A DNA stretch of 64,000 nucleotides from Chloroflexota bacterium (GTDB taxonomy: Bacteria; Chloroflexota; Dehalococcoidia; Tepidiformales; Tepidiformaceae): positions 1 through 64,000 of the forward strand of contig JACRBT010000012.1 of assembly GCA_016234445.1 (NCBI GenBank), written 5' to 3'. The notes under the pieces were generated by a model. It was not told the origin of the DNA, made no database searches, and saw only the letters and a program-made list of their open reading frames with translations. Below, piece after piece: positions 20,047-58,124 of the stretch (position 1 is its first letter; every line of letters begins with the position of its first letter). The translations under genes and the position numbers were made by a program.

Positions 20047-20052
20047 ACTTGC

Positions 20053-20630: not shown

Positions 20631-20694
20631 TCGCGCTTGCCGGTGTCCGGGATCGGGTGTACGAATCGCGGCGTACATCCCCCGGAGGTCCGCC

Positions 20695-21486
20695 ATGCCC
20701 ACCCTTGAACGCCCCACGGTCACCGTTTCCTACCGCGACGAAGGGGAGGGCGGGCCGCCCCTCGTTTTCCTCCACGGCTGGTGCGACGACTCGGGGAGCT
20801 GGGGCGCGACGGTCGCGGAGTTCAGCCACAGGCACCGTTGCATCGCCCCGGACATGCGGGGTCACGGGCAGTCGGGGCAGCCGCGCGACCACTCCTACTG
20901 GCCGGAGTCGCTTTCGAACGACGTCGTCGCGATCTGCGAGGCGGCCGGGGTAGAGCGCCCCGTGCTCGTCGGCCACAGCTTTGGAGGCTTTCTCGCGGCG
21001 ACGATCGCCCAGCGCTTCCCGGGGTTCGCGCGGGCGATCGTGGTGGAGGACCAGCCCCTCGACCTGCGCGGGTTCACGGGCCAGATGCGGGCGGTGGAAG
21101 CGATCATCCGCTCACCGGAACATCACATGGCGTTCCGGGACCAGCTTTTCGAGTCGATGATCACGGACGCGCTGGGGGCGGCCGGCCGGGAGCTCATTTC
21201 GAAGTCGAAGCTGGCGACGCCGGTGGAGGTGGGCCAGGCACTCTGGGCGCCGCTGTTCGACCTGACGGAGGGAGAGATCGCGGCCCGGAGCGACGCTCTT
21301 GTGGACGCGCTGGGGACCCAGCCTTCGCTGGTGATCGACGGCCAGCCGCAGCCGGAGTACCACGCGCTGGTCGCGCGGCGGGCGCCGTCGGCGCGGACGA
21401 TGGTCATCCCCTCGGGGCACTGGATCCACCTGGAACACCCGGCCGAGTTCCGGGCGGCGCTGCGAGAGTTCCTGGCGGGGGTGTAG
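20695..21486 (+). CDS. Alpha/beta hydrolase
   Basis: The 263-aa protein has the alpha/beta-hydrolase core: oxyanion segment LVFLHGWCDDSGSW, nucleophile elbow VGHSFGG (Ser), and catalytic His in PSGHWIHLEHP. DMRGHGQSGQP is the usual post-strand loop. It could be an esterase, lactonase or C-C hydrolase; the cap region is not diagnostic. GGAGGTCCGCC supports ATG 20695. A C-rich hairpin repeat begins directly after the stop. Confidence 0.88.
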   Translation: MPTLERPTVTVSYRDEGEGGPPLVFLHGWCDDSGSWGATVAEFSHRHRCIAPDMRGHGQSGQPRDHSYWPESLSNDVVAICEAAGVERPVLVGHSFGGFLAATIAQRFPGFARAIVVEDQPLDLRGFTGQMRAVEAIIRSPEHHMAFRDQLFESMITDALGAAGRELISKSKLATPVEVGQALWAPLFDLTEGEIAARSDALVDALGTQPSLVIDGQPQPEYHALVARRAPSARTMVIPSGHWIHLEHPAEFRAALREFLAGV

Positions 21487-21535
21487 ACCCTCACCCCCCG
21501 GCCCCCTCTCCACCGTTCGGTGGAGAGGGGAGGTG
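21487..21535. repeat. C-rich intergenic hairpin repeat, copy A
   Basis: The family consensus is roughly CCCTCACCCCCCGGCCCCCT followed by a hairpin. Here CCCCTCTCCACCG (21503-21515) pairs perfectly with 21518-21530. It begins one base after the hydrolase stop and may serve as a terminator or a REP-like element. Confidence 0.75.
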
Positions 21536-21582
21536 GCGACTCCTTCGGAGCGCCGTCTCTCGTGCCTCGGGGCGCGGGCCAC

Positions 21583-21588
21583 TACTAT
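21583..21588 (+). promoter_or_regulatory. -10 box of proB, leaderless type
   Basis: TACTAT is followed by 6 nt and then ATG 21595, with no Shine-Dalgarno. Confidence 0.6.
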
Positions 21589-21594
21589 GCAGGC

Positions 21595-22704
21595 ATGCGA
21601 TACCGGCGCGTGGTCGCGAAGTTCGGGACAAGCCTGCTGACTGCGGGGTCCGACCGGCTGGACCTGGAGGCGATGTCGCGCCTCGTCGGGCAGGTGGTGC
21701 GGCTGCGGGCACAGGGCTGCGAGGTCGTGGTGGTGTCGTCGGGGGCGCAGGCGGCGGGGCGGCACCGGCTGCGGAACCGGCTGCGCGAAGGGCAAACCCC
21801 CAGCCGCCAGGCCTACGCGAGCGTCGGCCAGAGCCACCTGATGCAGAGCTGGGACGAGCTTTTCGACTGGCACGACACGGTCGTCGCCCAGGTGTTGCTG
21901 ACGCGGCGGGACCTGAGCGACCGCCTCGGGTATCTCAACGCGCGGAACACGCTGCGGGACCTCCTCGAAAGCGGCACGGTCCCGATCGTCAACGAGAACG
22001 ACGCGGTGGCCCTCGACCAGGTGCTGGCGACGCGGATCGGGGAGAACGACAGCCTCTCCGCGTACGTCGCGAACCTGATCGACGCGGACGTGCTGATCAT
22101 CCTGACGGACGTCGAAGGGCTCTACGACTCGGACCCGCACACGAACCCGGAGGCGGTGCTGATCCGGCGGGTTGAGCGCGTCGACGCGGCGATCGAAGCT
22201 TCGGCGGCGGGGGCGCGGGGGCCGGGCACGGGCGGGATGGTGACGAAGCTGAGCGCGGCCCGGGTCGCTACGCAGGGCGGCGTCGACGTCGTGGTCGCGA
22301 ACGGGAGGTCGGCCGACGCGCTGGTGGCCATCGCCGGGGGCGAAGAGCGCGGGACCTTCTTCCCGGCGGCGGCCGGCAAGCTGGAAGGCCGGAAGCGCTG
22401 GATCCTCGGGAGCATCACGCGGGCGGGGCACATCGTTGTGGACGTGGGGGCGACGGCGGCGCTACGGGAACGCGGCCGGAGCCTGCTCCCGGCCGGGGTC
22501 GCGGCTGTCGAGGGGACGTTCGACCGGGGCGAGACGGTGGAAGTGCGCGACGCAGCGGGGCAGCGCGTGGCGGCGGGGATGACGAACTACGGCAGCGGCG
22601 AACTCGAGCGGATCCGGGGGCTCCGGAGCGACCGCATCGCCGAGACGCTGGGCTACGCCTACGGAGAAGAGGTCATCCACCGGGACAACCTGGTGCTGCT
22701 GTAG
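21595..22704 (+). CDS. proB: Glutamate 5-kinase with PUA domain
   Basis: The 369-aa protein phosphorylates glutamate, the first step of proline synthesis. The amino-acid-kinase fold shows VVAKFGTSLLTAGSDRLD, VVVVSSGAQAAG, VPIVNENDAVAL and GTGGMVTKLSAARVAT. A C-terminal PUA domain starts at about residue 280 (GHIVVDVGATAALRERGRSL). The start at ATG 21595 is fixed by the leaderless -10; the longer frame is spurious. proA is not next to it. The 3' side is a tandem-repeat region. Confidence 0.95.
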   Translation: MRYRRVVAKFGTSLLTAGSDRLDLEAMSRLVGQVVRLRAQGCEVVVVSSGAQAAGRHRLRNRLREGQTPSRQAYASVGQSHLMQSWDELFDWHDTVVAQVLLTRRDLSDRLGYLNARNTLRDLLESGTVPIVNENDAVALDQVLATRIGENDSLSAYVANLIDADVLIILTDVEGLYDSDPHTNPEAVLIRRVERVDAAIEASAAGARGPGTGGMVTKLSAARVATQGGVDVVVANGRSADALVAIAGGEERGTFFPAAAGKLEGRKRWILGSITRAGHIVVDVGATAALRERGRSLLPAGVAAVEGTFDRGETVEVRDAAGQRVAAGMTNYGSGELERIRGLRSDRIAETLGYAYGEEVIHRDNLVLL

Positions 22705-22711
22705 GGGGGCC

Positions 22712-22798
22712 GGAGTCCTTTAAGGCCCTCGGAGCGTTCTTTAGAGGGACCCAGGAGCATTCTTTAAAGACCTCGGGAGCACTCTTTAGAGGCGGGAA
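22712..22798. repeat. Short tandem repeat, four units of 19-23 bp
   Basis: Units start at GGAG (22712, 22731, 22754, 22776), and each carries a CTTTARAG-like core, as in GGAGCATTCTTTAAAGACCT. The AT-containing cores stand out in GC-rich DNA. A related CCCTTAAAG follows at about 22802. Confidence 0.75.
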
Positions 22799-22810
22799 GC
22801 CACCCTTAAA

Positions 22811-22831
22811 GCTGTTAGCTGTTAGCTGTTA
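22811..22831. repeat. Three perfect GCTGTTA heptamers
   Basis: GCTGTTA is repeated head to tail three times (22811, 22818, 22825) directly after the proB tandem repeat. The rest of 22705-22955 shows only the weak start region of the SDR gene. Confidence 0.8.
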
Positions 22832-22955
22832 GAAGGGGCATCGGGACCCGCTCGTGGGGAAGTGGGCCGCGGGCCGCTCCAGCCCGGCGAGACGAGGCGT
22901 TGGGGTTCGCGTAAGCTTGGCGCGCATCATCACCAGCATCCGGGGGGACCAAGTC

Positions 22956-23843
22956 GTGGCAGGCAAACTCGAAGGCAAGACCGCAATCATTACCGGCGCG
23001 GGCCGCGGGATCGGGCGCGAAGTCGCGCTCCTCTTCGCCAAAGAAGGCGCGAAGGTGGTGGTCAACGACCTTGGCGTGTCGGTGTCGGGCGAGACCCCGG
23101 ACGCGACCCCGGCCCAGCAGGTGGTCGACGAGATCAAGGCGGCGGGCGGCGATGCCCTCGCCAACTACGCCGACGTCGCGGACATGGAGCAGGCGGAAGA
23201 CCTCATCCGGGCGGCCCTGAACGAATGGGGCCACATGGACATCCTCGTGAACGTCGCCGGCATCCTCCGCGACCGGATGGTCTTCAACATGACGGAGGAG
23301 GAGTGGGACGCGGTGGTGCGGGTGCACATGAAGGGCACGTTCGCGACCTCGCGTTTCGCGTCGATCCACTGGCGGCAGGCCCGGCAGGGCGGACGGCTTA
23401 TCAACTTCACCTCCGGTTCGGGGCTTTTTGGCGCGCCGGGCCAGCCCAACTACGCGGCGGCGAAGATGGGGATCTGGGGCTTCACCCTGAGTTGCGCGCG
23501 GGCCCTGGGGCGCTACGGCGTCACCGCGAACAGCATCGGCCCCGGCGCAGCGACGCGGATGACCGCGACCGTGCCGACGGAGCGCCGCCGGGCCGGCTTC
23601 CCGGCCGACGTCGACCCGGAGCGTTCGCCGGCGAACATCGCGCCGCCGCTGGTCTACCTGGCGAGCGACGAGGGCGGCTGGGTGAGCGGCCGCTGCTTCG
23701 GGATCAGCGGCTACCGGGTGACGCTCTACAGCAACATCGAGTCGCAGATCGTGCTCCAGGGCAACGAGCCGTGGACGACGGACGCACTGTTCGAGCGGTT
23801 CAAGTCGACCTTCGGGGGCGCGATCAAAGCGATCGAGAGTTAG
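22956..23843 (+). CDS. Short-chain dehydrogenase/reductase, HSD17B4-like
   Basis: The protein has 295 aa from GTG 22956 behind a G-rich Shine-Dalgarno; the frame is open to 22854 but without fold signatures. The NAD site is [20 protein letters not shown]. The catalytic residues are Ser in [14 protein letters not shown] and Tyr-x3-Lys in NYAAAKMG. The long spacer after the first strand ([20 protein letters not shown]) is typical of the 3-hydroxyacyl-CoA dehydrogenase SDRs related to HSD17B4. I infer a beta-oxidation step, consistent with the other acyl-CoA genes here. Confidence 0.85.
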
Positions 23844-23890
23844 GCCCCTCACCCCCCGGCCCCCTGCTCCCGCTTCGCGGGAGAGGGGGA
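23844..23890. repeat. C-rich intergenic hairpin repeat, copy B
   Basis: It begins directly after the SDR stop. CTCCCGC (23867-23873) pairs with GCGGGAG (23877-23883). It lies between the convergent SDR and MFS genes. Confidence 0.75.
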
Positions 23891-23937
23891 GCGCGCGCCG
23901 GCGCCCACCTCGTGGGCGAGCGGGAGCGGCCGATCTT

Positions 23938-25197
23938 CTACGCCGGGTGCTGGTGGTGGGGGCGGGCGGCGCCGGCGATGAAGATGGCGAGACCGGCGAC
24001 GGCGGCGGCCATGGCGACGAGGAAGGCGGCCGGGTAGCTGGCGCTTTCGACGACCAGTCCGAGGGCGAACGCGCCCATGCTGAGGCCGAGGTCGTTGCCG
24101 AGGGTGAAGGTGCTCATCGCGCGGCCGCGTTCGCTGGGGCTTGAGCGGTCGACCATGAAGGCCATCATGGCGGGCTGGAAGGTCCCGGCTCCGGCGCCGT
24201 AGATGGCGGCGGAGAGGTAGATCATCGCCGGGCCGGTGGCCAGGGAGAGGACCGCCATGCTCACCACGAGGGCGCCGATGCCGGGGATGATGACGGTGGC
24301 GCGGCTGCGTTTGTCGATCTGCCGGCCGAGCGCGAGGCGCATGAGGATGACGAAGAGGGCATAGACGGCGAAGACGCCGCCTGGGTTGGCGATGCCGTGG
24401 TCGCGGGCGAAGAGGGGCATGAACGTGACCATCGCGGCGAAGACGAACGAGGTCGCGAAGTTGACGAGGGCCGGGAAGAGGGCTGCGCGGGCGAAGAGCT
24501 GGCGGGGGTCCAGGCCTCGCGGCGGGCCCTGGGCGGTGACGCGGGTCTCGGGGAGGCGGACGGCGAGGACCGCGGTCAGGAGGGCGGCGACGGTGGCGAC
24601 GAGGAAGAGGGTGGCGAAGTGGAGGTCGCCGGTGCGGGCGCCGCTGAGCCAGGTTGCGCGGGAGGTCATCGCCGAGTCGAAGCCGTCAAGGAGGCCGGCG
24701 TGGATGATCCAGCCTCCGAGGGCGGGGCCGGCGGCGAAGGCGAGGCTGTTGGCGAGGCCGTAGTAGCTCATGACTTCGCCACGGCGCGCGGCGGGGGCGA
24801 CGTCGGCGATGTAGGTGCCGGCAGAGGTGACGAACAGGGCGAGCGAAGCGCCGGTCAGGAGCCGCAGGGGAAGGACGCCGGCGGGCGAGCGGACGAGATG
24901 GTAGAGGGCGGCGTTGACGGCGAAGGCGAGGAGGCCGGCGACCATCACGGGCTTGCGGCCGATGCGGTCGACGGCGAGGCCGACAAAGGGCCGGGCGAAG
25001 AGCGCGGTGAGGCTGGAGATGCCGATGAGGAGGCCGATTTCGCCCTCGGCGCCGCCCAGTTCTTCGATGAAGAAGGGGAGGGTGGGGAAAAAGAAGAGGT
25101 AGGTGGTGAAGAAGACGAAGTTGATGAGGGTGACGGCGACGACTGCCCGGGTGAAGACGGGGGGACGCGGTTCAACGGTTAGGGCAGCATTCACCAT
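23938..25197 (-). CDS. MFS transporter
   Basis: The 419-aa protein has 12 predicted TM segments. The loop 2-3 signature is FVGLAVDRIGRKPVM, repeated as RLALGRQIDKRSR in the second half. GTYIADVAPAARRGEVMSYYG and FMVDRSSPSERGRAMSTF are typical of sugar- or drug-efflux-like MFS proteins. The substrate is unknown. ATG 25197 follows GAAGGA; the frame extends to 25311 but lacks a ribosome-binding site there. Between this gene and 25401 I see only promoter-size DNA. Confidence 0.85.
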   Translation of the reverse strand: MVNAALTVEPRPPVFTRAVVAVTLINFVFFTTYLFFFPTLPFFIEELGGAEGEIGLLIGISSLTALFARPFVGLAVDRIGRKPVMVAGLLAFAVNAALYHLVRSPAGVLPLRLLTGASLALFVTSAGTYIADVAPAARRGEVMSYYGLANSLAFAAGPALGGWIIHAGLLDGFDSAMTSRATWLSGARTGDLHFATLFLVATVAALLTAVLAVRLPETRVTAQGPPRGLDPRQLFARAALFPALVNFATSFVFAAMVTFMPLFARDHGIANPGGVFAVYALFVILMRLALGRQIDKRSRATVIIPGIGALVVSMAVLSLATGPAMIYLSAAIYGAGAGTFQPAMMAFMVDRSSPSERGRAMSTFTLGNDLGLSMGAFALGLVVESASYPAAFLVAMAAAVAGLAIFIAGAARPHHQHPA

Positions 25198-25400
25198 TCG
25201 TCCTTCGGGGCGGATTGTGAGGGGCGGGGGAAGGGCTGTCCACCTCGGCGCTAAACCGTTGCTCAGCAGCGGATTGCCGGCCGCGCCGCGATCTCCACGG
25301 GCTGTAACCAAAGCGCCACCGTTTGGACCCTCCCCAGGCGCACCCGGGGGGCGACATCCTGAGTGTGGGAGAGAGCCGCTCCCTTGCAGGAGTTGCTCGC

Positions 25401-26699
25401 GTGTGCATTGCCTTTCGAAAAATGATCAGGCAGGGGGGGAGCCGTGAGCAGGGGCAGGCCCTGCCGTTCTTCGCGATGATGCTGGTCATCGCCATCGGAG
25501 CGGTGGCCCTCAGCGTGGATGTGGGGAATCTCGTCCACGAGCGCCGGAAGACCCAGAACGCAGCCGACTCGGCGGCCCTGGCGGCGGTCGCGGTGATACG
25601 GGAAGGCGGGACGCGCTCGGCCGCGATGGCTGAGGGCGCGAGCTTCGCCGCCGCCAACGGCTACTCGGCGGAAGTGACGATCAACAACCCGCCGCTCACC
25701 GGCCCGGCCACGGGGAACCCCAACGCGTTCGAGGTGATCATCCACCACACGGTCCCGAAGTACTTCCTCGGCGTCGTCTACAAGGGCGACTGGTCGACCA
25801 CGTCGCGGGCGGTGGCCAGGATCACCACCGAGTCGAAGGGGTTCGGGGTGGTGACGCTGAACCCGACGCGGTGCAACTCGCTGCACATGAACAGCAACGC
25901 GCTGCTGCAAGTCACCGGGGGCGGGATCTACGTCAATTCGAACTGCAACACGGCGCTGGTGATGGAGAGCAACGCCACGGCGACGGCGAACGCGATCAGC
26001 GTCGTTGGCGGCTTCGACGGGAAGGCGAACTACCACGCGACCCCGGAGCCGGCGACGCACCAGCCCGCGGTCCCGGACCCGTTCGCGTCGATCCCGGTGC
26101 CCGTGGTCACGGGGCTGACTCGCTCGGTGCCCTGTGAATACACCCACGGGACGGTGTACTTCGACCCCGGCATCTACAACTGCAAACTGGTATTCAACGC
26201 GAACACGGTGGCGATCTTCCGGCCGGGGAACTACTCGTTCGCGGGCGGGATGCAGCTGGACAGCAACGTGACGCTGAACTTCGGGCGCGGGATCTACGTG
26301 ATGAAGGGCGGCGGGTTCCAGATGAACTCGAACGCCGTGGTCAACGGGCCGGACGGGGTGCTGATCTACAACACGTGCGCGGCGAGCTGCGGCGCCTCCG
26401 GGACGTTCCAGCTCAACAGCAACGCCCGCCTGAACATCAAGCCCTACGGGGCCCCGTATGCCAACATCTCCGTCTTCCAGGATCGCGCCTCGAACACGCC
26501 GCTGCAGTTCAATTCGAACGCGACGACGCTTTCAGGCGCCATCTATTCGAAGACCGCGGACATCCAGTACAACAGCAACGCCGAGGTGCCGCTCCAGTTC
26601 GTGGCGAACACGGTCCAGATGAACAGCAATGCCCGGATCGTTGTGGACGTGGCCGGGATGTCGACGATCGAGACGACGGCGGTGGCGCTGACCGAGTAG
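25401..26699 (+). CDS. TadG-like surface protein with a ladder of Asn-Ser-Asn repeats
   Basis: The protein has about 432 aa, with GTG 25401 supported by GCAGGAG 7 nt upstream (ATG 25422 is possible). The N-terminus is a TadE/TadG-type segment: EQGQALPFFAMMLVIAIGAV as TM, then VDVGNLVHERRKTQNAADSA. The rest contains about ten repeats of the type hydrophobic-x-NSNA (MNSNALL, VNSNCN, QMNSNAV, QLNSNAR, QFNSNAT, QYNSNAE and others), suggesting a beta-solenoid with an internal Asn ladder. I recall similar proteins under DUF7305. No other tad genes are nearby. Confidence 0.75.
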   Translation: MCIAFRKMIRQGGSREQGQALPFFAMMLVIAIGAVALSVDVGNLVHERRKTQNAADSAALAAVAVIREGGTRSAAMAEGASFAAANGYSAEVTINNPPLTGPATGNPNAFEVIIHHTVPKYFLGVVYKGDWSTTSRAVARITTESKGFGVVTLNPTRCNSLHMNSNALLQVTGGGIYVNSNCNTALVMESNATATANAISVVGGFDGKANYHATPEPATHQPAVPDPFASIPVPVVTGLTRSVPCEYTHGTVYFDPGIYNCKLVFNANTVAIFRPGNYSFAGGMQLDSNVTLNFGRGIYVMKGGGFQMNSNAVVNGPDGVLIYNTCAASCGASGTFQLNSNARLNIKPYGAPYANISVFQDRASNTPLQFNSNATTLSGAIYSKTADIQYNSNAEVPLQFVANTVQMNSNARIVVDVAGMSTIETTAVALTE

Positions 26700-26710
26700 G
26701 TCTCGCGGGC

Positions 26711-27799
26711 CTACCGGCTCTGCGAGACGCGCTCGATGGTGCCCCCGCCGAGGACCTCGTCGCCGTCGTAGAAGGCGATGGCCTGGCCGGGGGTGAGGGC
26801 GCGCTGGCGGCGGTCGAAGCGCACGGTGGCGGTCCCGCCCTCCAGTCCAAGCAGCACGGCGCCGGCGGGTTCGGCGCGATAGCGGGCCTTCGCCTGGAGC
26901 CTGGTCCCCGGCGCGGGGGGGGTGCCGAGGACCCAGCGGACTTCGCCCACTTCGACGGTGTCGGCGAAGAGCGCTTCCTCCGGGCCGATCGTGACGACGT
27001 TGGCGGCGGGGTCGATCGAAGTGACATAGCGGGGCTCGCCGAGGGCGACGCCGAGGCCCTTGCGCTGGCCGACGGTGAAGGAGGCGATGCCGCGATGTTC
27101 CCCGATGGCGGCGCCGGTTTCATCGCGGAGTTCCCCGGGGGCGCCGGCCGTCCGCGCCTCGACGAAGGCACGGTAGTCGTTGCCGGGGACGAAGCAGATC
27201 TCGTAGCTGTCGGGCTTGGCCGCCACGTCCATGCCGAGGCGGGCGGCGTGGGAGCGGACCTCGTCCTTGGTGAATTCGCCCACGGGCAGGAGGAGGCGGG
27301 CGAGCTGGTCCCGCTGGAGCATGTAGAGGACGTACGACTGGTCCTTGGCGGGGTCCTTCGCGCGCAGGAGACGGCGGCCACCGCCGGGCCCGCCGGCGAC
27401 GCGGGCGTAGTGGCCGGTGGCGATGTAGTCGGCGTCGAAGACGGGGAGGCGGTCGAAGAGGGCGCGGTACTTGATGTGCTCGTTGCAGCGGACGCAGGGG
27501 TTGGGGGTGCGGCCGGCGGCATAGTCGGCGACGAACTGGTCAACCACGCGCTCGCGGAACTCGTCTTCGAAGTTGACGACGTAGTGGCGGATGCCGAGGC
27601 GCTGGGCGACGCCGCGGGCATCGTCGACGTCTTCGACGCTGCAACACTGCTGGCGGCCGTTGAGTTCGTCCGGGCGGGGTTCGGTCCAGAGCCGCATGGT
27701 GACGCCGACGACGTCGTAGCCCTGCTCGAGGAGGAGGGCAGCGGCGACGGAGCTATCCACACCGCCGGACATGCCGACGACGACACGGGGCCGATTCAT
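26711..27799 (-). CDS. mnmA: tRNA 2-thiouridylase
   Basis: The 362-aa protein is full length. It has the PP-loop [18 protein letters not shown] for tRNA U34 adenylation, the catalytic Cys pair ([11 protein letters not shown] near residue 100 and [10 protein letters not shown] near 200), and IATGHYARV. It thiolates U34 of Lys, Glu and Gln tRNAs. Its ATG (27797-27799) overlaps the first possible rsfS start on the other strand, so the two share a very small promoter region. Confidence 0.96.
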
Positions 27800-28199
27800 G
27801 GCTGTGGTAAGATCCTTTCGACCCGCGCGTTTGCGGGGTGGAGCGAACTCCCTGGATTCCGAATCCCTGGCTCAACGCGCCGTCGACATCCTTTCGGACC
27901 GGCAGGCACTTGATATCGCCCTGCTCGACATTTCGAAGACGGCGACGTTCACCGACTACTTCGTGATCGCGACGGCACAGTCGCCTCTCCAGTTTAGCGC
28001 CCTCGCCGAACACCTGGAAAAAGGCCTCGAACCGGAGGGGATGACCCTTCGCCACCGGGAAGGCTCGGCCGACAACGGCTGGATGCTGCTGGACTTCGGC
28101 GACCTTATCGTCCACATCTTTTCGCCGGAGAAGCGCGAGTACTACCGGCTGGAAGAGCTCTGGGGGCGGACGACGCCGATCGTGCGGTTCACGGGCTGA
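27798..28199 (+). CDS. rsfS: Ribosomal silencing factor
   Basis: The RsfS domain begins at [20 protein letters not shown] and includes [20 protein letters not shown] and [14 protein letters not shown]. It binds L14 and blocks subunit joining in starvation. ATG 27798 gives 133 aa, longer than usual, and overlaps the mnmA start. A TAAGAT at 27808-27813 looks like a -10, which would place that ATG upstream of the transcript. TTG 27831, or a rare CTG 27852 behind GGTGGAG (115 aa, family-like), are alternatives. Product certain, start not. Confidence 0.9.
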
Positions 28200-28250
28200 C
28201 CCCTCACCCCCCGGCCCCCTGCTCCCCGCTTCGCGGGGCGAGGGGGAGGT
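28200..28250. repeat. C-rich intergenic hairpin repeat, copy C
   Basis: It starts immediately after the rsfS stop. CCCCGC (28024 offset aside, 28224-28229) pairs with GCGGGG (28233-28238). It is followed by a decayed GGACTCGGACCTCGG tract like the one at the left edge of the window. Confidence 0.7.
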
Positions 28251-28333
28251 TGGGACTCGGACCTCGGGACTAAGTCCTCAGTCCTCCCCGCGACCCCGTA
28301 GTTCCTTGGGCGGTTCGGGGGCATCCTAAGGGC

Positions 28334-29551
28334 ATGCTCGTGGTGCAGAAGTACGGTGGCACGTCGGTCGCGGACGCAGACCGGATCAAGCATGTCGCCG
28401 GGCGGGTCCTCCGGCGGGTGCATGCGGGGGACCAGGTGGTGGTCGTGGTTTCGGCGATGGGCAACGCGACAGACGAGCTGATCGACCTCGCCCTTTCGAT
28501 CACGGAGAACCCGGACCCGCGCGAGCTGGACATGCTGATCTCGACCGGGGAGCAGGTGTCGATCGCGCTCCTCGCGATGGCGCTGCGGGCGATGGGGCAA
28601 GAGGCGGTCGGGCTGACGGGGCAACAGGCGGGCATCTACACGCGCGCGCAGTACGGTTCGGGGCGAATCGCCCGCGTCGACGCCGACCGGGTGAAGGCGG
28701 AACTGGCGGCCGGGCGGGTGCCGATCGTCGCCGGCTTCCAGGGGGCGACCGAGGACGCGGAGATTGTGACCCTCGGCCGGGGTGGCAGCGACCTCAGCGC
28801 GGTGGCGCTGGCGATCGCGCTCGGGGCCGACCGTTGCGAGAACTGCAAGGACGTGACTGGCGTCTATACCGCCGACCCGCGGCTGGTGCCGGAAGCTCGG
28901 CAGCTGAAGGACCTGACCTACGAAGAGATGCTGGAGCTGGCCACGCAGGGCTCGCAGGTGATGCACAACCGGGCGGTGGAGCTCGCTTCGGTCTACAACC
29001 TCCCAATCCTGGTGACGTCGAGCATGGTTGACGCGCCCGGCACCCTCATCCACGGAGAATCGCAATTGGAAGAGCGCAACAGGGTGCGCGGGATCGCGCA
29101 CGATACCGACGTCGCCAAGATCACGGTGCGGCAGGTGCCCGACAAGCCGGGGATCGCCACGAACATCTTCGAACCGCTGGCCGAGGCGGGGATCAGCGTG
29201 GACACGATCGTCCAGAACGCGAGCGCCGGGAAGCTCACCGACCTGACGTTCACGCTTTCGCGGAAGGACCTGCGCAAGGCCGAGGAGCTGATGCCGGCGA
29301 TCTGCGAGACGGTGGGCGCGAATGGGTTCGTCTCCGACGGGAACCTGGGCAAGGTGAGCATCGTGGGGGTCGGCATCCAGACGGCGCACGGCTACGCGGC
29401 ACGGATGTTCCGGGCGCTCTTCGACGCGGGGATCAACATCGAGCTGATCTCGACGAGCGAGATCCGGCTGACCTGCATCATCGACGCCGGCCGGGTGCCG
29501 GAGGCGGTGCGGGCGCTGCATGCCGCCTTCGAACTGGAGACGGCCGAGTAA
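28334..29551 (+). CDS. lysC: Aspartate kinase
   Basis: The 405-aa protein makes aspartyl phosphate for lysine, threonine and methionine synthesis. Kinase signatures are VVQKYGGTSVADADRI, VVVVSAMGNATDELIDLA, STGEQVSIALLAM, GRGGSDLSAVALA and YTADPRLVPEAR. Two ACT domains end the protein (KPGIATNIFEPLAEAGISVD and GYAARMFRALFDAGINIELI), so feedback by lysine and/or threonine is likely. Its length fits the actinobacterial/Bacillus LysC class. Confidence 0.95.
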   Translation: MLVVQKYGGTSVADADRIKHVAGRVLRRVHAGDQVVVVVSAMGNATDELIDLALSITENPDPRELDMLISTGEQVSIALLAMALRAMGQEAVGLTGQQAGIYTRAQYGSGRIARVDADRVKAELAAGRVPIVAGFQGATEDAEIVTLGRGGSDLSAVALAIALGADRCENCKDVTGVYTADPRLVPEARQLKDLTYEEMLELATQGSQVMHNRAVELASVYNLPILVTSSMVDAPGTLIHGESQLEERNRVRGIAHDTDVAKITVRQVPDKPGIATNIFEPLAEAGISVDTIVQNASAGKLTDLTFTLSRKDLRKAEELMPAICETVGANGFVSDGNLGKVSIVGVGIQTAHGYAARMFRALFDAGINIELISTSEIRLTCIIDAGRVPEAVRALHAAFELETAE

Positions 29552-49510: not shown

Positions 49511-52282
49511 TCAGCGGTGGCGGCCGAAGCGGAGGGTCGCGATCTCCCAGGGGCGGAGGAGGAAGGACCAGCCGCCGCCCCCGGCGTTCGCGACCTCGCC
49601 GCGAGGGGTGTCGAGGAGGTCGACGAGCCCGGCGCCGGGGCTCGCCGCGGGGACCCGGATCGCGGCCTGCCCGGGCGCATCCGAAGCGTGATAGACACGG
49701 ATCAGGGGCGAGCCGTCGGCGTCGCTGCGGTGGAAGGCGGACGGGACCACGGCGGCGCTGGAGAAGGCGGCCAGCGGGAGCGAACCCTCGGCCGAACCTT
49801 CGTGCTCGTTCGTGGCATATGCGAGGGGAGGGTGGGCGAAGCTGTGGGCCAGGGTCTGGACGCCGGCCTCGCGCCAGGCGCCGCGGTAGGTCGTGAGGGC
49901 GTAGTCGAAGATGTGGACCCCGGGCATCTGGGCGTCGGGCGTGGCGATGGTCGGGCCGGCGCCCCCGCGGCGCGAAACGAGGTCCGGGCGCGAAAGCCAG
50001 CCGACGCAGCGGACGAGGGTGAGGGCGTAGGCCTGGCGCCCCTCGCGGTCGCGGACGACTTCGCCTTCCTGGAGCCCGCGATTGAGCACGGCGACGCCGA
50101 CCCCGCCGCTTTCGAAGGCGGCGAAGGTCTTCTGGGGGAAGGTCGTCGGGGGCTGCTCGGCGCTTTCGCCGTTCCAGGGCGGCACGGCGAGGCCGCGTTC
50201 GGCGACGTGGAACTGGTTTTCGGTGATGGCGTGGTCCGTCGCGAAGGGCAGCGGGAAGATGGCCCGGAGGCGATGGTCCTCCGCCTGGTTGACCACGGCG
50301 ACGCGGAAGTCAACGCGCGGCAGGCCAGCCCAGAGGGTGACGTGGACGACGATCGGGAGCGCTGTCGTCCGCTTCGTCCGGCGTTTCCGCGAGGCCGTGA
50401 GCTTCGCCGGGACGGAGAGCACGGCCATGTAGGAGAGGCTGGCGGAGACGGCGTCGCTTGTCGTGCCCACGAGTTCGACCGACTCGGGCTGGAAAACGGG
50501 GCCGGGGAGGATGTCGGCGTTGTACTCGTCGCCGCGGTCGGCCTCGTCGACGAAGGCGGTGACGTTGCGGAGGTCGATACCGTTGGCCCAGTCGCGCACC
50601 CGGAGGCGGCCCTTGCGGTCGAGGCGGACGTCGTAGAAGCCGTTCGCGATCGAGCGCCGGCCGGCGGCGATGCCCGTGGCCGCCGGAGCAGGTTCCGCGG
50701 AGGGCACGAGCAGCTCCACGCCGACGGTGTCCGAGGCGGGGAGGACCGCCCGGAGGGTCCTCACACCGGAGCGGCGGACGATGACTTCGGCGGTGTCTGC
50801 GAGGTTGTTGGCGGCGACCTGGCGCACCTCTTCCCGGACCGTCTCGTCGTCGACAACGCAGAGCCCATCGCCGACGACGGTTTCGACGCGAAGGTGGCGG
50901 TCTTTCAGTTCCCAGCGCATGTCTTCGACGAAGTGGGCGTCGTAGCGGCCTTCGCGGATGAAGTCGAGGTGGCGGACGGCGCCACGGGGCGAGACCTCTT
51001 CGTGCACAAGTTGCTGGCCGGGGCTGACGGCTCCGAGGGCGACGGGGACGAGTTCGCCCGAGGGGAGACGCAACGATGCGGCCTCCCAGTCGGCGGGGAC
51101 CGTGGTTTCGACCACGGCCGGGGCGAAGGGCACCGGCCGGAAGAGAGCGACGCCGCCGCCACGGGGGACGTTCGTGCGGGTGGCGAGATGGGCCATCGAC
51201 TCGCGCGCGACCTGGCGGGCGAGCTGCTCGGCGCGGTCGTAGCGGGGCATCATCTCGACGTGGGTCTGGTCGACGCTGCAGCCGCAGATGGAGTCGTGGG
51301 GGGAGTTTTCGAGGACGAGGGACCACGCCTGGCGGAGGGCGGGGCTGCCGTCGGGGCCGCCGTGGAGGTGGGCGAGGAGTTCGAGGGGCTCGGCGATGCG
51401 TTCGATGGCGGAGGCGACATGGAAGTCGCGCTGCTTGATGTTCGCCCGCGCGGAGAGGACGCCGACAAGGACGTTCGAGCGGTCGGGGGAGCGCATCTCT
51501 CCCTGGTGCACGTGCTCGCCGATGCCGGCTTCGAACATCGCCCGTTCATAGCCGGCGAGGGTGACGATGCGGTAGTCGTAGCCCTGGCCGGCGGCATTGG
51601 CGATGGCTGTGGGCATGGTCTTCTCGACGCGTGAGTGGTCGGTGCCGTTCATGAGCAGGGCGGGCTCGTCGTCGCGGCGTTCGCGCTCCTGGCGGCGGGT
51701 GCGTTCGAGCATGTCGGCGGGATCGACCGGCAACCGCCAGCCGCTGGAGTAGCTGTTGCGGAGGTAGAGCGTGGGGATGCGGGTGCCGTCGGGGGCTTCC
51801 CAGCGGAACGACCAGCCGGGGACGGAGTCCGGCACCCCGCGCCAGAGGCAAGCGCTCGTGAGGCCGAGCTGGGCCATGACCTGGGGCATCTGGGCGATGT
51901 GGCCGAACTGGTCGCCGCAGAGGCCGATCCGGAGCGAGCCCCCGAGGCGGTCGGCGTAGCGGATGCCCTTCTGGAAGCTTCGGATGTGCGATTCGCCGCT
52001 GGGGAGGAACTCGTCGGGCTGGACCCACCAGGGGCCGATGACGATGCGGCCGGAGGCGATCATGGCGCGGAGGCGGCCTTCGTTCTCGGGCCGGAGGAGG
52101 AGGTAGTCGTCGATGACGATGGACTGGCCGTCGAGGTTGAAGCAGGCGAATTCGGGGTGCGCTTCGAGATGGTCGAGGAGTTCGTCGATCATCTGGACGA
52201 GGCGCCAGCGGAAGAGTTCGTGGGGCTGGTACCACTCGCGGTCCCAGTGGCAGTGGGGGACGACGTAGACGGTGCGCGTCAT
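49511..52282 (-). CDS. Alpha-mannosidase, GH38 (mannosylglycerate hydrolase-like)
   Basis: The 923-aa protein has the GH38 zinc site VVPHCHWDREWYQP at the start, and the nucleophile Asp with downstream ligands in GLCGDQFGHIAQMPQVMAQL. PWWVQPDEFLPSGESHIRSF lines the active site. A large all-beta C-terminal part follows (for example GYERAM, then FFSSAAVVPSAF-like segments). It resembles MngB-type enzymes of mannosylglycerate use more than eukaryotic Golgi types. It has no signal peptide, so it should be cytoplasmic. Transport genes for a substrate are not adjacent. Confidence 0.88.
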   Translation of the reverse strand: MTRTVYVVPHCHWDREWYQPHELFRWRLVQMIDELLDHLEAHPEFACFNLDGQSIVIDDYLLLRPENEGRLRAMIASGRIVIGPWWVQPDEFLPSGESHIRSFQKGIRYADRLGGSLRIGLCGDQFGHIAQMPQVMAQLGLTSACLWRGVPDSVPGWSFRWEAPDGTRIPTLYLRNSYSSGWRLPVDPADMLERTRRQERERRDDEPALLMNGTDHSRVEKTMPTAIANAAGQGYDYRIVTLAGYERAMFEAGIGEHVHQGEMRSPDRSNVLVGVLSARANIKQRDFHVASAIERIAEPLELLAHLHGGPDGSPALRQAWSLVLENSPHDSICGCSVDQTHVEMMPRYDRAEQLARQVARESMAHLATRTNVPRGGGVALFRPVPFAPAVVETTVPADWEAASLRLPSGELVPVALGAVSPGQQLVHEEVSPRGAVRHLDFIREGRYDAHFVEDMRWELKDRHLRVETVVGDGLCVVDDETVREEVRQVAANNLADTAEVIVRRSGVRTLRAVLPASDTVGVELLVPSAEPAPAATGIAAGRRSIANGFYDVRLDRKGRLRVRDWANGIDLRNVTAFVDEADRGDEYNADILPGPVFQPESVELVGTTSDAVSASLSYMAVLSVPAKLTASRKRRTKRTTALPIVVHVTLWAGLPRVDFRVAVVNQAEDHRLRAIFPLPFATDHAITENQFHVAERGLAVPPWNGESAEQPPTTFPQKTFAAFESGGVGVAVLNRGLQEGEVVRDREGRQAYALTLVRCVGWLSRPDLVSRRGGAGPTIATPDAQMPGVHIFDYALTTYRGAWREAGVQTLAHSFAHPPLAYATNEHEGSAEGSLPLAAFSSAAVVPSAFHRSDADGSPLIRVYHASDAPGQAAIRVPAASPGAGLVDLLDTPRGEVANAGGGGWSFLLRPWEIATLRFGRHR

Positions 52283-54666: not shown

Positions 54667-55293
54667 GTGGCTGTTCTTGCACCGATCACGCTGGCGGGGC
54701 GGCATGTGAAGCTGGCGCCGCTGGCGCTGGAGCACGTCCCGGCGCTGGTGGCGGCTGCTTCGGTGGACCGCGCGTCGTACCGGTGGACCTTCGTGCCCGG
54801 CGGCGCCGACGCGATGACGACCTACGTGCAGGAGGCGCTGGCGCTGCGGGATGCGGGCCTGGCGCTGCCGTTCGCGACCATCGATGCGGCGACGGGCACG
54901 GTCATCGGCACGACGCGATACGGGAACGTCGAGCGCTGGCCCTGGCCCGAGGCCAACCCCAACCGCCGGGAAGTGGACGCGGTCGAGATCGGCTGGACGT
55001 GGCTGAGTGCCGCCGCCCAGCGGACGCCCATCAACACCGAGGCGAAGTACCTGATGATGCGCCACGCCTTCGAGACGTGGGGCGTCCACCGGCTCGTGCT
55101 CCAGACCGACGAGCGGAACGAGCGCTCACGGCGGGCGATCGAACGGATCGGGGCGCGGCTCGAAGGGATCCTCCGGGCGAACCGGGCATCGTCGATCGGC
55201 GACGTGCGGAGCACCGCGGTCTACTCGGTCATCGCCGCCGAGTGGCCGGGTGTGAAGGCGGCGCTGGAAGCCCGGATGGCAGCGCGGGGCTAG
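54667..55293 (+). CDS. GNAT acetyltransferase, RimJ/RimL-like
   Basis: The protein has 208 aa from GTG 54667 behind GGGGAGG. RimL-type features are ITLAGRHVKLAPLALEHVPA at the start, AVEIGWTWLSAAAQRTPINT, KYLMMRHAFETWGVHRLVLQ and SRRAIERIGARLEGILR. It probably acetylates a protein N-terminus or small amine. Its stop overlaps that of the small membrane gene on the other strand by 4 bp. Confidence 0.88.
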   Translation: MAVLAPITLAGRHVKLAPLALEHVPALVAAASVDRASYRWTFVPGGADAMTTYVQEALALRDAGLALPFATIDAATGTVIGTTRYGNVERWPWPEANPNRREVDAVEIGWTWLSAAAQRTPINTEAKYLMMRHAFETWGVHRLVLQTDERNERSRRAIERIGARLEGILRANRASSIGDVRSTAVYSVIAAEWPGVKAALEARMAARG

Positions 55294-55523
55294 GGTGGGT
55301 CGTCACCGTCGCCGTCGCGGCCAATGAGGAGCGGCGCGAGGAAGAAGGCGAAGACCGTCGCGGCGAGACCGAGGGCGCCGAGCGCCGTCATCGCGCCATC
55401 GGAGGAAAGCAGCCCGATGACGAGGACGACCACCGACGCCGCCGCGAGGACGACCGGGAGCCATCGCTTGAACGGGAATGCCGGCAGCAGCCGCGGCCGC
55501 CGCCCGGTGTCACGGTTGTTCAT
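55290..55523 (-). CDS. Small two-TM membrane protein, 77 aa
   Basis: ATG 55523 follows GGGAGA and lies inside the end of the preceding gene (14-bp overlap). After a basic start (RDTGRRPRLLPAFPFKRW) come two hydrophobic helices (LPVVLAAASVVVLVIGLL and ALGALGLAATVFAFFLAPLL) and an acidic tail. It has no recognisable family. It is the last gene of the DUF488 operon; small membrane proteins in this position can be effectors, but that is only inference. Confidence 0.65.
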   Translation of the reverse strand: MNNRDTGRRPRLLPAFPFKRWLPVVLAAASVVVLVIGLLSSDGAMTALGALGLAATVFAFFLAPLLIGRDGDGDDPP

Positions 55524-56229
55524 GTTCTCCCGGAGCGCGCAGCCGGAGGGCGGGATTCGACTTCAGGTGCAACGCGTTGACCTGGAGCCAGTGTACCTCT
55601 GGTTGGTCCGGGGCACTGGCGAAGGGCCGGCCCACGCCCACGCCGAGGAGGACCTCGTCGCCGTCCGCGAGGGCCGCCTGCGCGCGGGCAATCCGGCTCA
55701 TGTCCGGCGCTGAGAAGGCGTCCTGGAAGTAGCGGGCGTCGGTCAGGCTGAGGTCGAGGCCCTCGCCGGGGAGCCGGATCCGCAAGCTCTTCTTGTCGCC
55801 ATCGTCGCGGAGGACGAGGTCAACCGGTCCCGCCGGGCGGTAGCACCCCAGCGAGGCCGGCCCGGTCCCCAGGGGGAGGAAGCCCCGGCCCCCGCGCCGT
55901 TCCATCTCTTCGCCGAAGATGTCCGCGAGCGTCTCCGCCGCCGACTCTGACAGCACCTGCCACAGCCGCTCCGCGCTCACGTGCCCCAGCTGGCGGGTCG
56001 CCGCGGGGTCGAAGCGGTGGTCCTCCACCTCCGGCGGAGACGGTTCGGGCACCACGCGTCCCAGTTCGACCAGTGCGCCGAAGTCGAAAGGCCCGCCCGG
56101 GACGAGCAACTCGGTGCCGAGCCGGCGGCCAAGCGTGGGCCGGACATGCCGGTGGTCTCCCTCGGTGATGCCGGCGACACAACAAAAGCCCGGCGCCATA
56201 CGGGTGACGTGGGTGATGAGGATCCGCAT
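55510..56229 (-). CDS. Dual-OB-like protein of the DUF488 operon
   Basis: The protein has 239 aa. It begins RILITHVTRMAPGFCCVAGI, a start I associate from memory with dual OB-fold proteins linked to DUF488 in predicted conflict systems; that link needs checking. The protein is beta-rich (VRPTLGRRLGTELLVPGGPF, KKSLRIRLPGEGLDLSLTDA) and ends with a possible second OB-like part (VHWLQVNALHLKSNP). It starts 12 bp after the second DUF488 gene and overlaps the membrane gene. Nucleic-acid binding is plausible; the activity is unknown. Confidence 0.6.
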   Translation of the reverse strand: MRILITHVTRMAPGFCCVAGITEGDHRHVRPTLGRRLGTELLVPGGPFDFGALVELGRVVPEPSPPEVEDHRFDPAATRQLGHVSAERLWQVLSESAAETLADIFGEEMERRGGRGFLPLGTGPASLGCYRPAGPVDLVLRDDGDKKSLRIRLPGEGLDLSLTDARYFQDAFSAPDMSRIARAQAALADGDEVLLGVGVGRPFASAPDQPEVHWLQVNALHLKSNPALRLRAPGEHEQP

Positions 56230-56241
56230 TGGCCGGGGATG

Positions 56242-56679
56242 TTACAGATGGCGGATGGAAATGTCGCCCCAGGCATCGCGCAGATACTCGGCCGCCAACC
56301 GGCGGTGGCAGCGCTCGGGCTCGTGTTCGCTGCAAAGCAAGATGATGCCGGGCTCGAGGGCTTCCCGGCCCAGGGCGACGGCGACATTGCGGTCCGTCAG
56401 CAGTTGGAGGTAGCGCTCGGCGTAGGCGTCCCAGGTGAGTGTGCCTGCCCGGTACGCCTTCAGCATGTCTTCCTCGGGCGCCAATTCCGGCAGTTCCAGG
56501 TATTCGACACCGCAGAGCCGCGACAGGAAGAACACGAGGTCCGGTTTCTTCGCGAAGCTGGCGAGTTGCGAGGTGTTGTTGAGGCGCACGTCGCCCAGGC
56601 GCTTGACGCCACTGGCCGCTACGCGATCGAAGAATGACTCGGCGCTCGACTTGGTGAAACCGATAGTGGCGATCTCCAC
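56242..56679 (-). CDS. DUF488 protein, shorter copy
   Basis: The protein has 145 aa from GTG 56679 behind GGAGG. DUF488 motifs are IATIGFTKSSAESFFDRV, LGDVRLNNTSQLASFAKKPD and LLCSEHEPERCHRRLAAEYL, whose Cys-x7-Cys-His-Arg pattern is the family's conserved cluster. It overlaps the longer DUF488 gene by 61 bp. The family is proposed to act on nucleic acids or as a Cys-based enzyme, but no activity is proven. Confidence 0.85.
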   Translation of the reverse strand: MEIATIGFTKSSAESFFDRVAASGVKRLGDVRLNNTSQLASFAKKPDLVFFLSRLCGVEYLELPELAPEEDMLKAYRAGTLTWDAYAERYLQLLTDRNVAVALGREALEPGIILLCSEHEPERCHRRLAAEYLRDAWGDISIRHL

Positions 56680-57182
56680 GAGTCCTCCAGCATGTTCCCC
56701 TGGAACGCAAGCTTCGTTTCCGGGCGGAGAGAGCCATCCCCGAGGATGTGCTCGATCGACGCAGGGTCGAACCCGCGCTCTCGCAGGGTCCTCGTAACCA
56801 GCAGGAAACGGTGGCAGGCCGTCGGGTCCGCCTCCGAACAGAGTAACGCGAGGCGGTAACGCTCGGCGTTCCGTTCCAGGGTGGCGATCCCTTCGACGAA
56901 CTTCGCCGAACGCGACAGAGGCCCGTAGAGGACGTGCCCGTGCTCGTCGTAGAACTCGTCGCCATCCGGCCGGCCGCCGAGCGAATCGCCCATGAACGCG
57001 TAGCGGATGTCCTCCGCCGCCAGCAGGCGCGCGAGCCGCTCGCGGTTGAAGTGGGGCGAGTATTTCGAATAAGGGGCGCTGCGGACGTCGACCACAGCCT
57101 CGATGCCGTGCTCGCGGAGGAGCTCGACCAGCCGCTCGGGGGTGTGGTTCGAATGGCCGATGGTGAAGATCACAGGCGGCAC
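56619..57182 (-). CDS. DUF488 protein, longer copy
   Basis: The protein has 187 aa from GTG 57182. DUF488 motifs are VIFTIGHSNHTPERLVELLR, VVDVRSAPYSKYSPHFNRER and LLCSEADPTACHRFLLVTRT. It differs from its downstream neighbour by keeping the full IGHSN and RSxPYSKYSP blocks, so this may be the active copy. It is the first gene of the four-gene operon; the 51 bp to the crotonase stop leave little room for a promoter. Confidence 0.88.
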   Translation of the reverse strand: MPPVIFTIGHSNHTPERLVELLREHGIEAVVDVRSAPYSKYSPHFNRERLARLLAAEDIRYAFMGDSLGGRPDGDEFYDEHGHVLYGPLSRSAKFVEGIATLERNAERYRLALLCSEADPTACHRFLLVTRTLRERGFDPASIEHILGDGSLRPETKLAFQGNMLEDSWRSPLSVSPSRAPSHSSIA

Positions 57183-57233: not shown

Positions 57234-58124
57234 CTAGCGCTTCATCCGGTAGTCGGCGTAAGGGGCATCGCGCTTGGCGAGGGCTTCCTTGAGGCCGCCA
57301 CCGCTTTCCGCGGCCGCGCGCATGTTGTCCTGGAACTTGTAGGACTCGGCGGTGAACTGGGCGGCGGCGTCGAGGTCGGTCGAGCTGCGGACCGAGGAGT
57401 AGATGCCCATGTTCTCGTAGAAGCGGTTCATGTTGACCTTGAGGATGGCCAGGTGGTCGGCGGTCATGTTGGCGAAGCGGTCGGCGAAGGCGATGGTGCG
57501 TTCTTCGAGCTCTTCCTTCGGCCAGGCGTGGTTGATCATGCCGATCCGCTCGGCTTCGACGCCGCTGACGCTGTCGCCGGTGTAGTAGAGCTCCTTCGCC
57601 TTTCGCATGCCGATGACGAGCGGCCAGATGACGCCGGTGCGCGAGGTACCGAGACCGCGAAGGCCGGGGTGTCCGAGCTGGGCGTCCTCCGCCGCGACGA
57701 CGAGGTCAGCCATCATTGCGAGTTCGCAGCCGCCGGCGAGGGCGTAGCCGTGGATCTGGGCGATGGTGATCTTGGCCATGTTCCAGAAGTACATGTGGAT
57801 GTCGGTGATCTGCTGCATGCCGGTGCGGGTGCCCATGAGGAGGCGGCGGCCCTTGTCGTCGGCGCCGCGGTAACGGCGGACGACGCCGTCGGCGCCACCG
57901 CGGGCGGGCGTGAGGTCGTAGCCGGCGCTGAAGGTGCGCCCGGCGCCGCGGAGGATGATGACGCGGCAGGAGTCGTCGGCTTCGAGGTCGTGGAGGGAGT
58001 CGTTCAGTTCGAAGAGCAGCTCTTGGGAGAGGGAGTTCATCTTCTCGGGGCGATTGAGGGTGACGCGGGCGACCCGCCCGTCGGTGCCGACGCGATCGAT
58101 GGCGATGTTTTCGAAGGTAGCCAC
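57234..58124 (-). CDS. Enoyl-CoA hydratase-like protein with an altered active site
   Basis: The protein has 296 aa from GTG 58124 behind GGAG, with TATACT further upstream. The crotonase start is VARVTLNRPEKMNSLSQELL, the oxyanion part TFSAGYDLTPARGG and HGYALAGGCELAMMADLVVA. The helix that normally bears catalytic Glu reads GHPGLRGLGTSRTGVIWPLV, with no Glu in either usual place. It may catalyse a different reaction. The C-terminus is about 30 aa longer than the other crotonases here. Confidence 0.85.
   Translation of the reverse strand: MATFENIAIDRVGTDGRVARVTLNRPEKMNSLSQELLFELNDSLHDLEADDSCRVIILRGAGRTFSAGYDLTPARGGADGVVRRYRGADDKGRRLLMGTRTGMQQITDIHMYFWNMAKITIAQIHGYALAGGCELAMMADLVVAAEDAQLGHPGLRGLGTSRTGVIWPLVIGMRKAKELYYTGDSVSGVEAERIGMINHAWPKEELEERTIAFADRFANMTADHLAILKVNMNRFYENMGIYSSVRSSTDLDAAAQFTAESYKFQDNMRAAAESGGGLKEALAKRDAPYADYRMKR

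What the first reader, a model, noticed from the sequence alone, without database searches (positions are those of the whole stretch)
55290..57182. Four-gene operon: two different DUF488 proteins, a dual-OB-like protein and a 2TM protein
The genes are tightly coupled (61-bp overlap, 12-bp gap, 14-bp overlap). Both DUF488 proteins keep the Cys...CysHisArg cluster but are otherwise divergent, so they probably have different roles. The partner begins with ILITHVTRMAPGFCC, which I associate from memory with dual-OB proteins linked to DUF488 in predicted conflict systems. A membrane protein at the end would suit an effector. This is my main candidate for an undescribed system.
Basis: partly seen in the sequence, partly recalled or inferred. 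Interest (0 to 1): 0.7.

Follow-up and report, generated by a model that had tools for sequence, protein, structure and literature searches.

The report
DUF488 pair plus double-OB DNA module
Three neighbouring bacterial genes, two related enzymes and a likely DNA-binding partner, form a compact cassette that is scattered across many bacterial phyla and sometimes sits inside known anti-phage systems, so it is probably a little-studied DNA-acting defence module; the fourth gene first thought to belong to it does not.

Summary
The genes are as described, but the system is three genes, not four. DUF488-A, DUF488-B and a dual-OB protein (Pfam DuOB) correspond to PADLOC's defence candidate PDC-M45. 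All three occur together in 74 of 90 distinct homologous loci. The overlap between the two DUF488 genes has the same length in 33 of 49 loci, from 11 named phyla. Both DUF488 active sites are intact. The DuOB model resembles HIN-200 and single-strand DNA-binding proteins, the DUF488-B model cysteine phosphatases. The two-helix membrane gene is not a component: its family lives mostly in relatives without the triad, and the nearest syntenic triad lacks it.

Distribution is patchy. Partners point to DNA and, in part, to defence: triads lie inside one DUF499/Hma operon and one BREX operon and beside a type IIG enzyme; DuOB is fused to RecQ in three loci and DUF488-A to a SNF2 helicase in one. Most loci have no such neighbour, general defence-island enrichment was not shown, and a DNA-repair role stays open. 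My reading: a cysteine-dependent DNA-processing module with an OB-fold guide, probably used against phages. The triad is catalogued; I found no report of the BREX/Hma/RecQ links in the papers I could search.

The parts
56619..57182 (-). DUF488-A, first gene of the triad (PDC-M45B type)
   Evidence: PF04343 2.2e-22; PDC-M45B 6.6e-53; D32, R34, C115, E117, C123-H124-R125 invariant in 50 of 50 rows
56242..56679 (-). DUF488-B, second gene of the triad (PDC-M45C type)
   Evidence: PF04343 1.8e-20, PF22751 DUF488-N3a 7.8e-11; PDC-M45C 4.5e-57; D30, R32, C116, E118, C124-H125-R126 invariant in 51 of 51 rows; PTP-like model
56619..56679 (-). 61-base out-of-frame overlap of DUF488-A and DUF488-B, same length in 33 of 49 loci
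55510..56229 (-). DuOB, dual-OB protein, third gene of the triad
   Evidence: PF22557 29.0 bits, cut-off 27; model pLDDT 94.3; HIN-200, SSB and telomere end-binding matches; no PADLOC match of its own, relatives match PDC-M45A
55290..55523 (-). two-helix membrane protein; overlaps DuOB by 14 bases but is judged NOT part of the system
   Evidence: family in 12 of 61 relatives, only 2 of them with DuOB; no match in 43 + 54 triad or DuOB loci; absent from syntenic L080; a short membrane ORF behind DuOB in 1 of 51 scorable loci

Best explanation
The window holds a three-gene, horizontally scattered DNA-acting module (PADLOC candidate PDC-M45). Shown: two intact, distinct DUF488 enzymes encoded by overlapping genes next to a dual-OB protein, conserved as a unit; in some genomes the unit lies inside a BREX or DUF499/Hma operon or is fused to RecQ or SNF2 helicases. 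Inferred: DuOB binds single-stranded or end-proximal DNA, for example strands opened by a helicase. The two DUF488 subunits, made in a fixed ratio by translational coupling, form a heteromeric enzyme that uses its P-loop-like cysteine for phosphate- or sugar-directed chemistry on DNA ends or nicks. The likeliest purpose is to disable invading phage DNA, either as a stand-alone unit (as in the window) or plugged into modification-based defence systems that supply helicase and self/non-self marking.
For: Triad in 74 of 90 distinct loci. Overlap of identical length in 33 of 49 loci. All candidate catalytic residues invariant in both DUF488s. Folds: OB for DuOB residues 1-93, PTP/Rossmann-like for DUF488-B. 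DuOB-RecQ fusions in L061, L063, L091 and a SNF2-DUF488-A fusion in L100; RecQ or RecQ-like genes beside six more. Triad inside HmaA-[triad]-HmaB-HmaC in L036/L123, beside a type IIG enzyme and SNF2 helicase in L047, inside a PglXI-[triad]-PDC-S19-?-BrxH-PglZ operon in L190, a locus fetched after the link was first seen. Patchy: 4 of 61 relatives, 3 of 396 and 5 of 395 genomes in two other phyla.
Against: Most loci, the window included, have no defence gene or helicase of the tested kinds beside the triad (RecQ-type 9 of 90; window contig none). PADLOC hits among 102 neighbour genes exceed those among 102 control genes only through a few genes, and controls have hits too. RecQ also fits repair. 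No phage, plasmid or viral-contig match, so no sign of counter-play with phages. No experiment. The chemistry is inferred from fold and residues; Foldseek and VIA scores are modest (no Foldseek E below 1e-3, no Z of 8).
Confidence: 0.52

Rival explanations
1. A DNA repair or recombination accessory: the DUF488 pair cleans damaged DNA ends held by DuOB and unwound by RecQ, with no dedicated anti-phage role; its place in BREX/Hma operons is occasional recruitment.
For: RecQ fusions and neighbours; a UvrD gene beside a DuOB without DUF488 in L057 and Mfd upstream of the triad in L075; most triads stand outside recognised defence operons.
Against: Very patchy even within one family (4 of 61); triads embedded between core genes of Hma and BREX operons.
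Confidence: 0.28
2. An RNA-, NAD- or nucleotide-directed enzyme system: the OB protein binds RNA (for example tRNA) or a nucleotide product and the DUF488 pair acts on RNA termini or NAD derivatives.
For: VIA and Foldseek rows also include OB domains of aminoacyl-tRNA synthetases; a DEAD gene that looks like an RNA helicase follows DuOB in L109; such chemistry is predicted for the wider clade (recalled from Burroughs and Aravind 2023, not held).
Against: The fused helicases are DNA-type (RecQ, SNF2) and the operon partners are DNA methylases and BREX proteins.
Confidence: 0.14
3. First reader's four-gene system with the two-helix protein as membrane effector.
For: 14-base overlap with DuOB in the window.
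Against: No match in 43 + 54 loci, independent family in 12 of 61 relatives, absent from syntenic L080, no equivalent short membrane ORF in 50 of 51 scorable loci.
Confidence: 0.03

Closest known systems
PADLOC-DB phage defence candidate PDC-M45 (A/B/C)
   Same: Same three families side by side: B and C match at 6.6e-53 and 4.5e-57; A is the DuOB family.
   Different: The window's DuOB is too divergent to match any PDC-M45A model (PDLC04656 also finds nothing in the genome, though that search rang in no control either). PDC-M45 is a listed candidate; I found no test of it.
BREX (type-3-like, PglXI/BrxH/PglZ) and DUF499-centred BREX-related = Hma systems
   Same: In L190 and L036/L123 the triad lies between their core genes on one strand.
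   Different: The window has none of the Hma, type IIG or related genes on its contig by tblastn; the triad usually occurs without them. The main text of the BREX review PMC12839542 has no 'DUF488', 'RapZ' or 'dual OB' (passages).
Protein tyrosine / dual-specificity phosphatase and rhodanese superfamily
   Same: DUF488-B model aligns with SsoPTP, laforin and PRL phosphatases (Z 6.7-7.1) with Cys at a strand end and Arg at the start of the next helix.
   Different: CbiL-type methyltransferases score as high (Z 7.8); spacing is C-x9-R with a second Cys, not C-x5-R; activity unknown. The superfamily placement is also recalled from Burroughs and Aravind 2023.
HIN-200 and SSB/RPA/telomere end-binding OB proteins
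   Same: Foldseek ranks 1-11 are HIN-200-type DNA-sensor domains (E 3e-3 to 2e-2); VIA rows led by telomere end-binding protein alpha, human SSB and an archaeal RPA domain (Z 6.8-7.2).
   Different: No sequence relation (no PDB hit at E up to 1); whole-chain TM-scores near 0.3; VIA aligns mainly residues 1-93.

Membership tests
PADLOC PDC-M45 | PDC-M45B and PDC-M45C proteins adjacent | tested here: met
   6.6e-53 and 4.5e-57, overlapping genes
PADLOC PDC-M45 | PDC-M45A model matches the third protein | tested here: not met
   No match at E up to 0.1. Of 10 relatives scanned 3 match at 1.6e-40 or better, 1 at 4.2e-6, 4 not at all, and for 2 the list was cut at 25 rows. So membership by the model fails for this one protein, while membership by family (PF22557) holds.
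PADLOC PDC-M45 | Protection in a phage assay | not testable with these tools
   bench work
Pfam DuOB PF22557 | Score over the curated cut-off along the domain | tested here: met
   29.0 bits against 27, profile 1-207 of 210
Pfam DUF488 PF04343 | Score over cut-off with the C-x-E and C-H-R residues | tested here: met
   80.4 and 74.2 bits against 22.2; residues
PTP/rhodanese superfamily | Superfamily fold with catalytic Cys at the strand-4/helix loop | tested here: inconclusive
   Z about 7 to PTPs but also to CbiL-type methyltransferases; no Z of 8
BREX or DUF499/Hma system | Core ATPase, methylase and helicase genes beside the triad in the window | tested here: not met
   tblastn with HmaA, HmaB, HmaC, type IIG, SNF2 and RecQ queries finds none on the window's contig; BREX core models were not scanned there. 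The window triad is therefore not filed as BREX or Hma.
Four-gene system with membrane effector | Two-helix gene conserved with the triad | tested here: not met

The most novel reading that the evidence does not exclude
The DUF488-A/DUF488-B/DuOB triad is a portable effector cassette shared by several otherwise different modification-based defence systems (type-3-like BREX, DUF499/Hma, type IIG-like) and by RecQ-linked forms: a phosphatase-like heterodimer that chemically alters DNA ends or nicks of incoming phage DNA, a chemistry I do not know to have been shown for any defence system (recalled, not searched exhaustively). The stand-alone form in the window would work with host helicases.
Probability: 0.33. 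Interest if true: 0.78.

Novelty: new member of a known kind. Interest (0 to 1): 0.5.

Why it matters
PDC-M45 is a listed defence candidate for which I found no mechanism. The gene overlap of fixed length, two intact and distinct active sites, RecQ and SNF2 fusions, and triads inside BREX and Hma operons turn it into a specific, testable proposal: a cysteine-based DNA-end enzyme with an OB-fold guide. If right, it would add a chemistry to anti-phage immunity and explain accessory genes in some BREX-type operons. It also shows that current models miss divergent DuOBs such as this one.

Tried and rejected
Four-gene system with a membrane effector: rejected. The two-helix protein's family is in 12 of 61 relatives (own genome included), only 2 of which have DuOB and one of those on another contig. 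It is not found in the 43 + 54 loci nor in syntenic L080.

Phage- or plasmid-borne relatives: no match in phages, plasmids or two scans of viral contigs. The first genome-contig scan with the single protein found nothing; the alignment scan gave 54 loci.

Defence-island enrichment: 102 genes nearest 17 DuOB loci (16 with both DUF488s; L037 has DUF488-B only) against 102 genes from one control region each on the same 17 contigs; one search had listed 134 and 136 genes, of which six per locus were used to stay under the residue limit. At 1e-10, 140 against 22 PADLOC models were hit (25 of the 140 shown), but the visible excess comes from few genes (Hma genes of L036, type IIG and SNF2 genes of L047, one GajA-like gene), and the controls have pAgo, Vsr, mads and AriA hits. 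I do not claim general enrichment. By tblastn, RecQ, SNF2, UvrD or methylase relatives occur in 4 of 17 triad loci and 0 of 17 controls, but L036 and L047 supplied part of the queries, so this overstates the contrast.

Not counted as support: L075's upstream gene, a weak Cas3 hit, is Mfd; L109's DEAD gene looks like an RNA helicase; UvrD beside L057 has no DUF488 pair; the SNF2-like gene in L103 is about 5 kb away on the other strand; L047's DEAD gene 6 kb away is a DeaD RNA helicase.

Phylum labels: the nearest relative L080 is titled Holophagae (Acidobacteriota), but its hydratase is 80% identical to the window's and another gene is 72-76% identical over half its length to genes of the window's family, so it is not used as a cross-phylum transfer. 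In the 49-row tree the phylum labels need 17 changes (minimum 10, shuffled mean 28.4): transfer is likely, but the labels are clustered.

Iterated profiles trained on both sets hardly separated DUF488-A from -B, so A/B calls rest on single-sequence phmmer scores. Rows dropped from alignments: L122 from A5; L122, L128, L132 from A6; L087 from A7 (truncated or partial). Absence from the structure lists excludes no fold.

Literature: no held paper has 'PDC-M45' or DUF488 with RecQ and 'defense'; 25 hold 'DUF488' (listing only, passages of PMC12704722 and PMC9674854); searches gave nothing on the triad.
Full report
What is in the window. Third-position GC of the four is 0.82-0.88, against 0.91 in both flanking genes. 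Pfam assigns DUF488 to the first two and DuOB (PF22557) to the third; the fourth has no family over its cut-off. The flanks are an enoyl-CoA hydratase gene (57234-58124) and a GNAT gene (54667-55293). The genome (97% complete) has no other DUF488 match and no RQC-type RecQ match.

It is a listed candidate. PADLOC-DB matches DUF488-A to PDC-M45B (6.6e-53) and DUF488-B to PDC-M45C (4.5e-57). The window's DuOB matches nothing there, but of 10 DuOB relatives scanned three match PDC-M45A at 1.6e-40 or better and one at 4.2e-6 (four have no match, and two lists were cut at 25 rows), so PDC-M45A models are DuOB proteins. The triad is a divergent member of PDC-M45. No held paper contains 'PDC-M45'. 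I recall that Burroughs and Aravind (2023) placed DUF488 in a RapZ-C/DUF488/DUF4326 clade and predicted DNA-end processing in conflict systems; the paper is not held, so this is a lead and not a test.

The triad is a unit. DuOB occurs in 4 of 61 genomes of the window's family and class, own genome included, and by the Pfam model in 45 of 400 of the phylum. From these I fetched 43 loci (five further genomes of one genus and the window's own were not fetched). Both DUF488s lie beside DuOB in 31 of 43, one in 2 (L067 at a contig end), none in 10 (two at contig ends). The order is A-B-DuOB in 21, DuOB-A-B in 9, B-A-DuOB in 1. A scan of named genomes gave 54 loci; 49 hold all three, 47 of them as A-B-DuOB on one strand and 2 with mixed orientation. 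The other five: L087 and L122 at contig ends, L128 truncated, L129 with B only, L132 with A only. Seven loci are in both sets, so 74 of 90 distinct loci have the full triad. Of five further loci from two other phyla (a sixth, L189, is L113 again) all five have both DUF488s and four have DuOB by single-sequence search; in L191 DuOB is weak (26.7 bits).

The fourth gene is not part of it. The two-helix protein has no match in the 43 + 54 loci. Its family is found in 12 of 61 genomes, only two of which have DuOB, one of those (G008) on another contig. The closest syntenic locus, L080, keeps the hydratase (80% identity) and the triad without it. Only 1 of 51 scorable loci has a short membrane ORF directly behind DuOB.

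A fixed gene overlap. From the stop of DUF488-A to the profile start of DUF488-B the overlap is 55 nt in 33 of 49 loci, carrying 11 phylum labels plus one unlabelled record; 44 of 49 overlap at some length, six by 79 and three by 82 nt, in the same relative frame. The window has 55, which is the 61-base overlap counted from the start codon. This argues for translational coupling and a fixed A:B ratio (inference).

Folds and residues. Candidate catalytic residues D-x-R, C-x-E and C-H-R are invariant in 50 of 50 rows for A and 51 of 51 for B. The B model (pLDDT 92.2) is most like CbiL (Z 7.8), the archaeal phosphatase SsoPTP (7.1), laforin (7.0) and PRL1 (6.9), with C116 at the end of a strand and R126 in the first turn of the next helix. 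Such Z values can reflect a common arrangement, so phosphatase-type chemistry is inferred. DuOB (pLDDT 94.3) finds HIN-200 dual-OB DNA sensors at Foldseek ranks 1-11 (E 3e-3 to 2e-2) and telomere end-binding protein, SSB and RPA domains by VIA (Z 6.8-7.2, mainly residues 1-93); the second half is barely tested. No solved structure is related by sequence to DuOB or DUF488-B; A has one marginal hit (E 0.073) that looks unrelated.

Partners. DuOB is fused in frame to a complete RecQ helicase in L061 and L063 (one genus) and in L091 (WOR-3). DUF488-A is fused to a SNF2 helicase in L100, downstream of an HmaB-like methylase gene. RecQ or RecQ-like genes lie beside the triad in L099, L102, L104, L115 (Planctomycetota) and L077, and beside the contig-end locus L067 (Chloroflexota): RecQ links in 9 of 90 loci. 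In L036/L123, a Dehalococcoidia genome of the window's own family, the triad lies between HmaA (1679.5 bits) and HmaB-HmaC (1402 and 1146 bits), all on one strand; the HmaB start codon shares a base with the DuOB stop codon. In L047 a SNF2 helicase and a type IIG restriction-methylase precede it on the same strand. In L058 a DuOB without DUF488 lies beside a SNF2/PLD helicase and a methylase gene. In L190, fetched after these links were first seen, the triad lies in a BREX operon of type-3 look: BrxC-like ORF (27.8 bits, far below the cut-off of 400), an unassigned gene, a PD-DExK nuclease-like gene, PglXI (1548 bits, its stop overlapping the DUF488-A start), triad, PDC-S19 (391 bits), an unassigned gene, BrxH (1574 bits, model named BrxHI|BrxHII), PglZ (1035 bits). 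Hma was named as a candidate in PMC8565338 (passages) and renamed DUF499-centred BREX-related in PMC12839542 (passages and one section), whose main text has no DUF488, RapZ or 'dual OB'. No held paper has DUF488 with RecQ and 'defense'.

Limits. Most loci have no such neighbour. The matched comparison does not show general defence-island enrichment; a narrower one (4 of 17 against 0 of 17) is partly circular. RecQ suits repair as well as defence. The window copy stands alone on its contig by these queries. The window-type DuOB is rare elsewhere: 3 of 396 and 5 of 395 genomes in two other phyla, centres included. The tree of 49 triads needs 17 phylum changes against a minimum of 10 (shuffled mean 28.4), consistent with transfer, though MAG labels are imperfect and that of L080 looks wrong.

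Verdict. Best supported is a three-gene, DNA-acting, cysteine-enzyme module with an OB-fold binder, probably used against phages and sometimes built into BREX-type operons. Shown: gene unit, residues, predicted folds, contexts. Inferred: DNA-end chemistry, work with helicases, defence.

Noticed in passing
L190 (G932:C18, about 8651-28584): A BREX-type operon that holds, besides the triad, a PDC-S19 candidate gene and a PD-DExK nuclease-like gene between core genes, and two genes without a useful assignment.
   Followed up: partly
L053:7940-9520; L062:3658-4794: DuOB in one frame with an NHL-repeat region (L053) and with a glyoxalase-like domain (L062).
   Followed up: no
L039, L041, L042: Two tandem DuOB genes upstream of the DUF488 pair, in three genomes of one genus.
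   Followed up: no
L069, L070, L071: Stand-alone DuOB genes without DUF488; in L070 a nucleotide-cyclase-domain gene follows. Seven genomes of one genus have such a low-scoring DuOB, so this form may be inherited vertically.
   Followed up: no
L080: Contig titled Holophagae whose genes are 72-80% identical to genes of the window's Chloroflexota family; probably a wrong bin or label.
   Followed up: partly
window 50102-50194: ARAGORN's only tRNA in the window (Pro, GGG) lies inside a long ORF on the other strand (49511-52282) and may be a false call.
   Followed up: no
L128: DUF488-A appears joined to the second half of DuOB, and another DuOB piece lies 4 kb away: a possible decayed or rearranged copy.
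   Followed up: no
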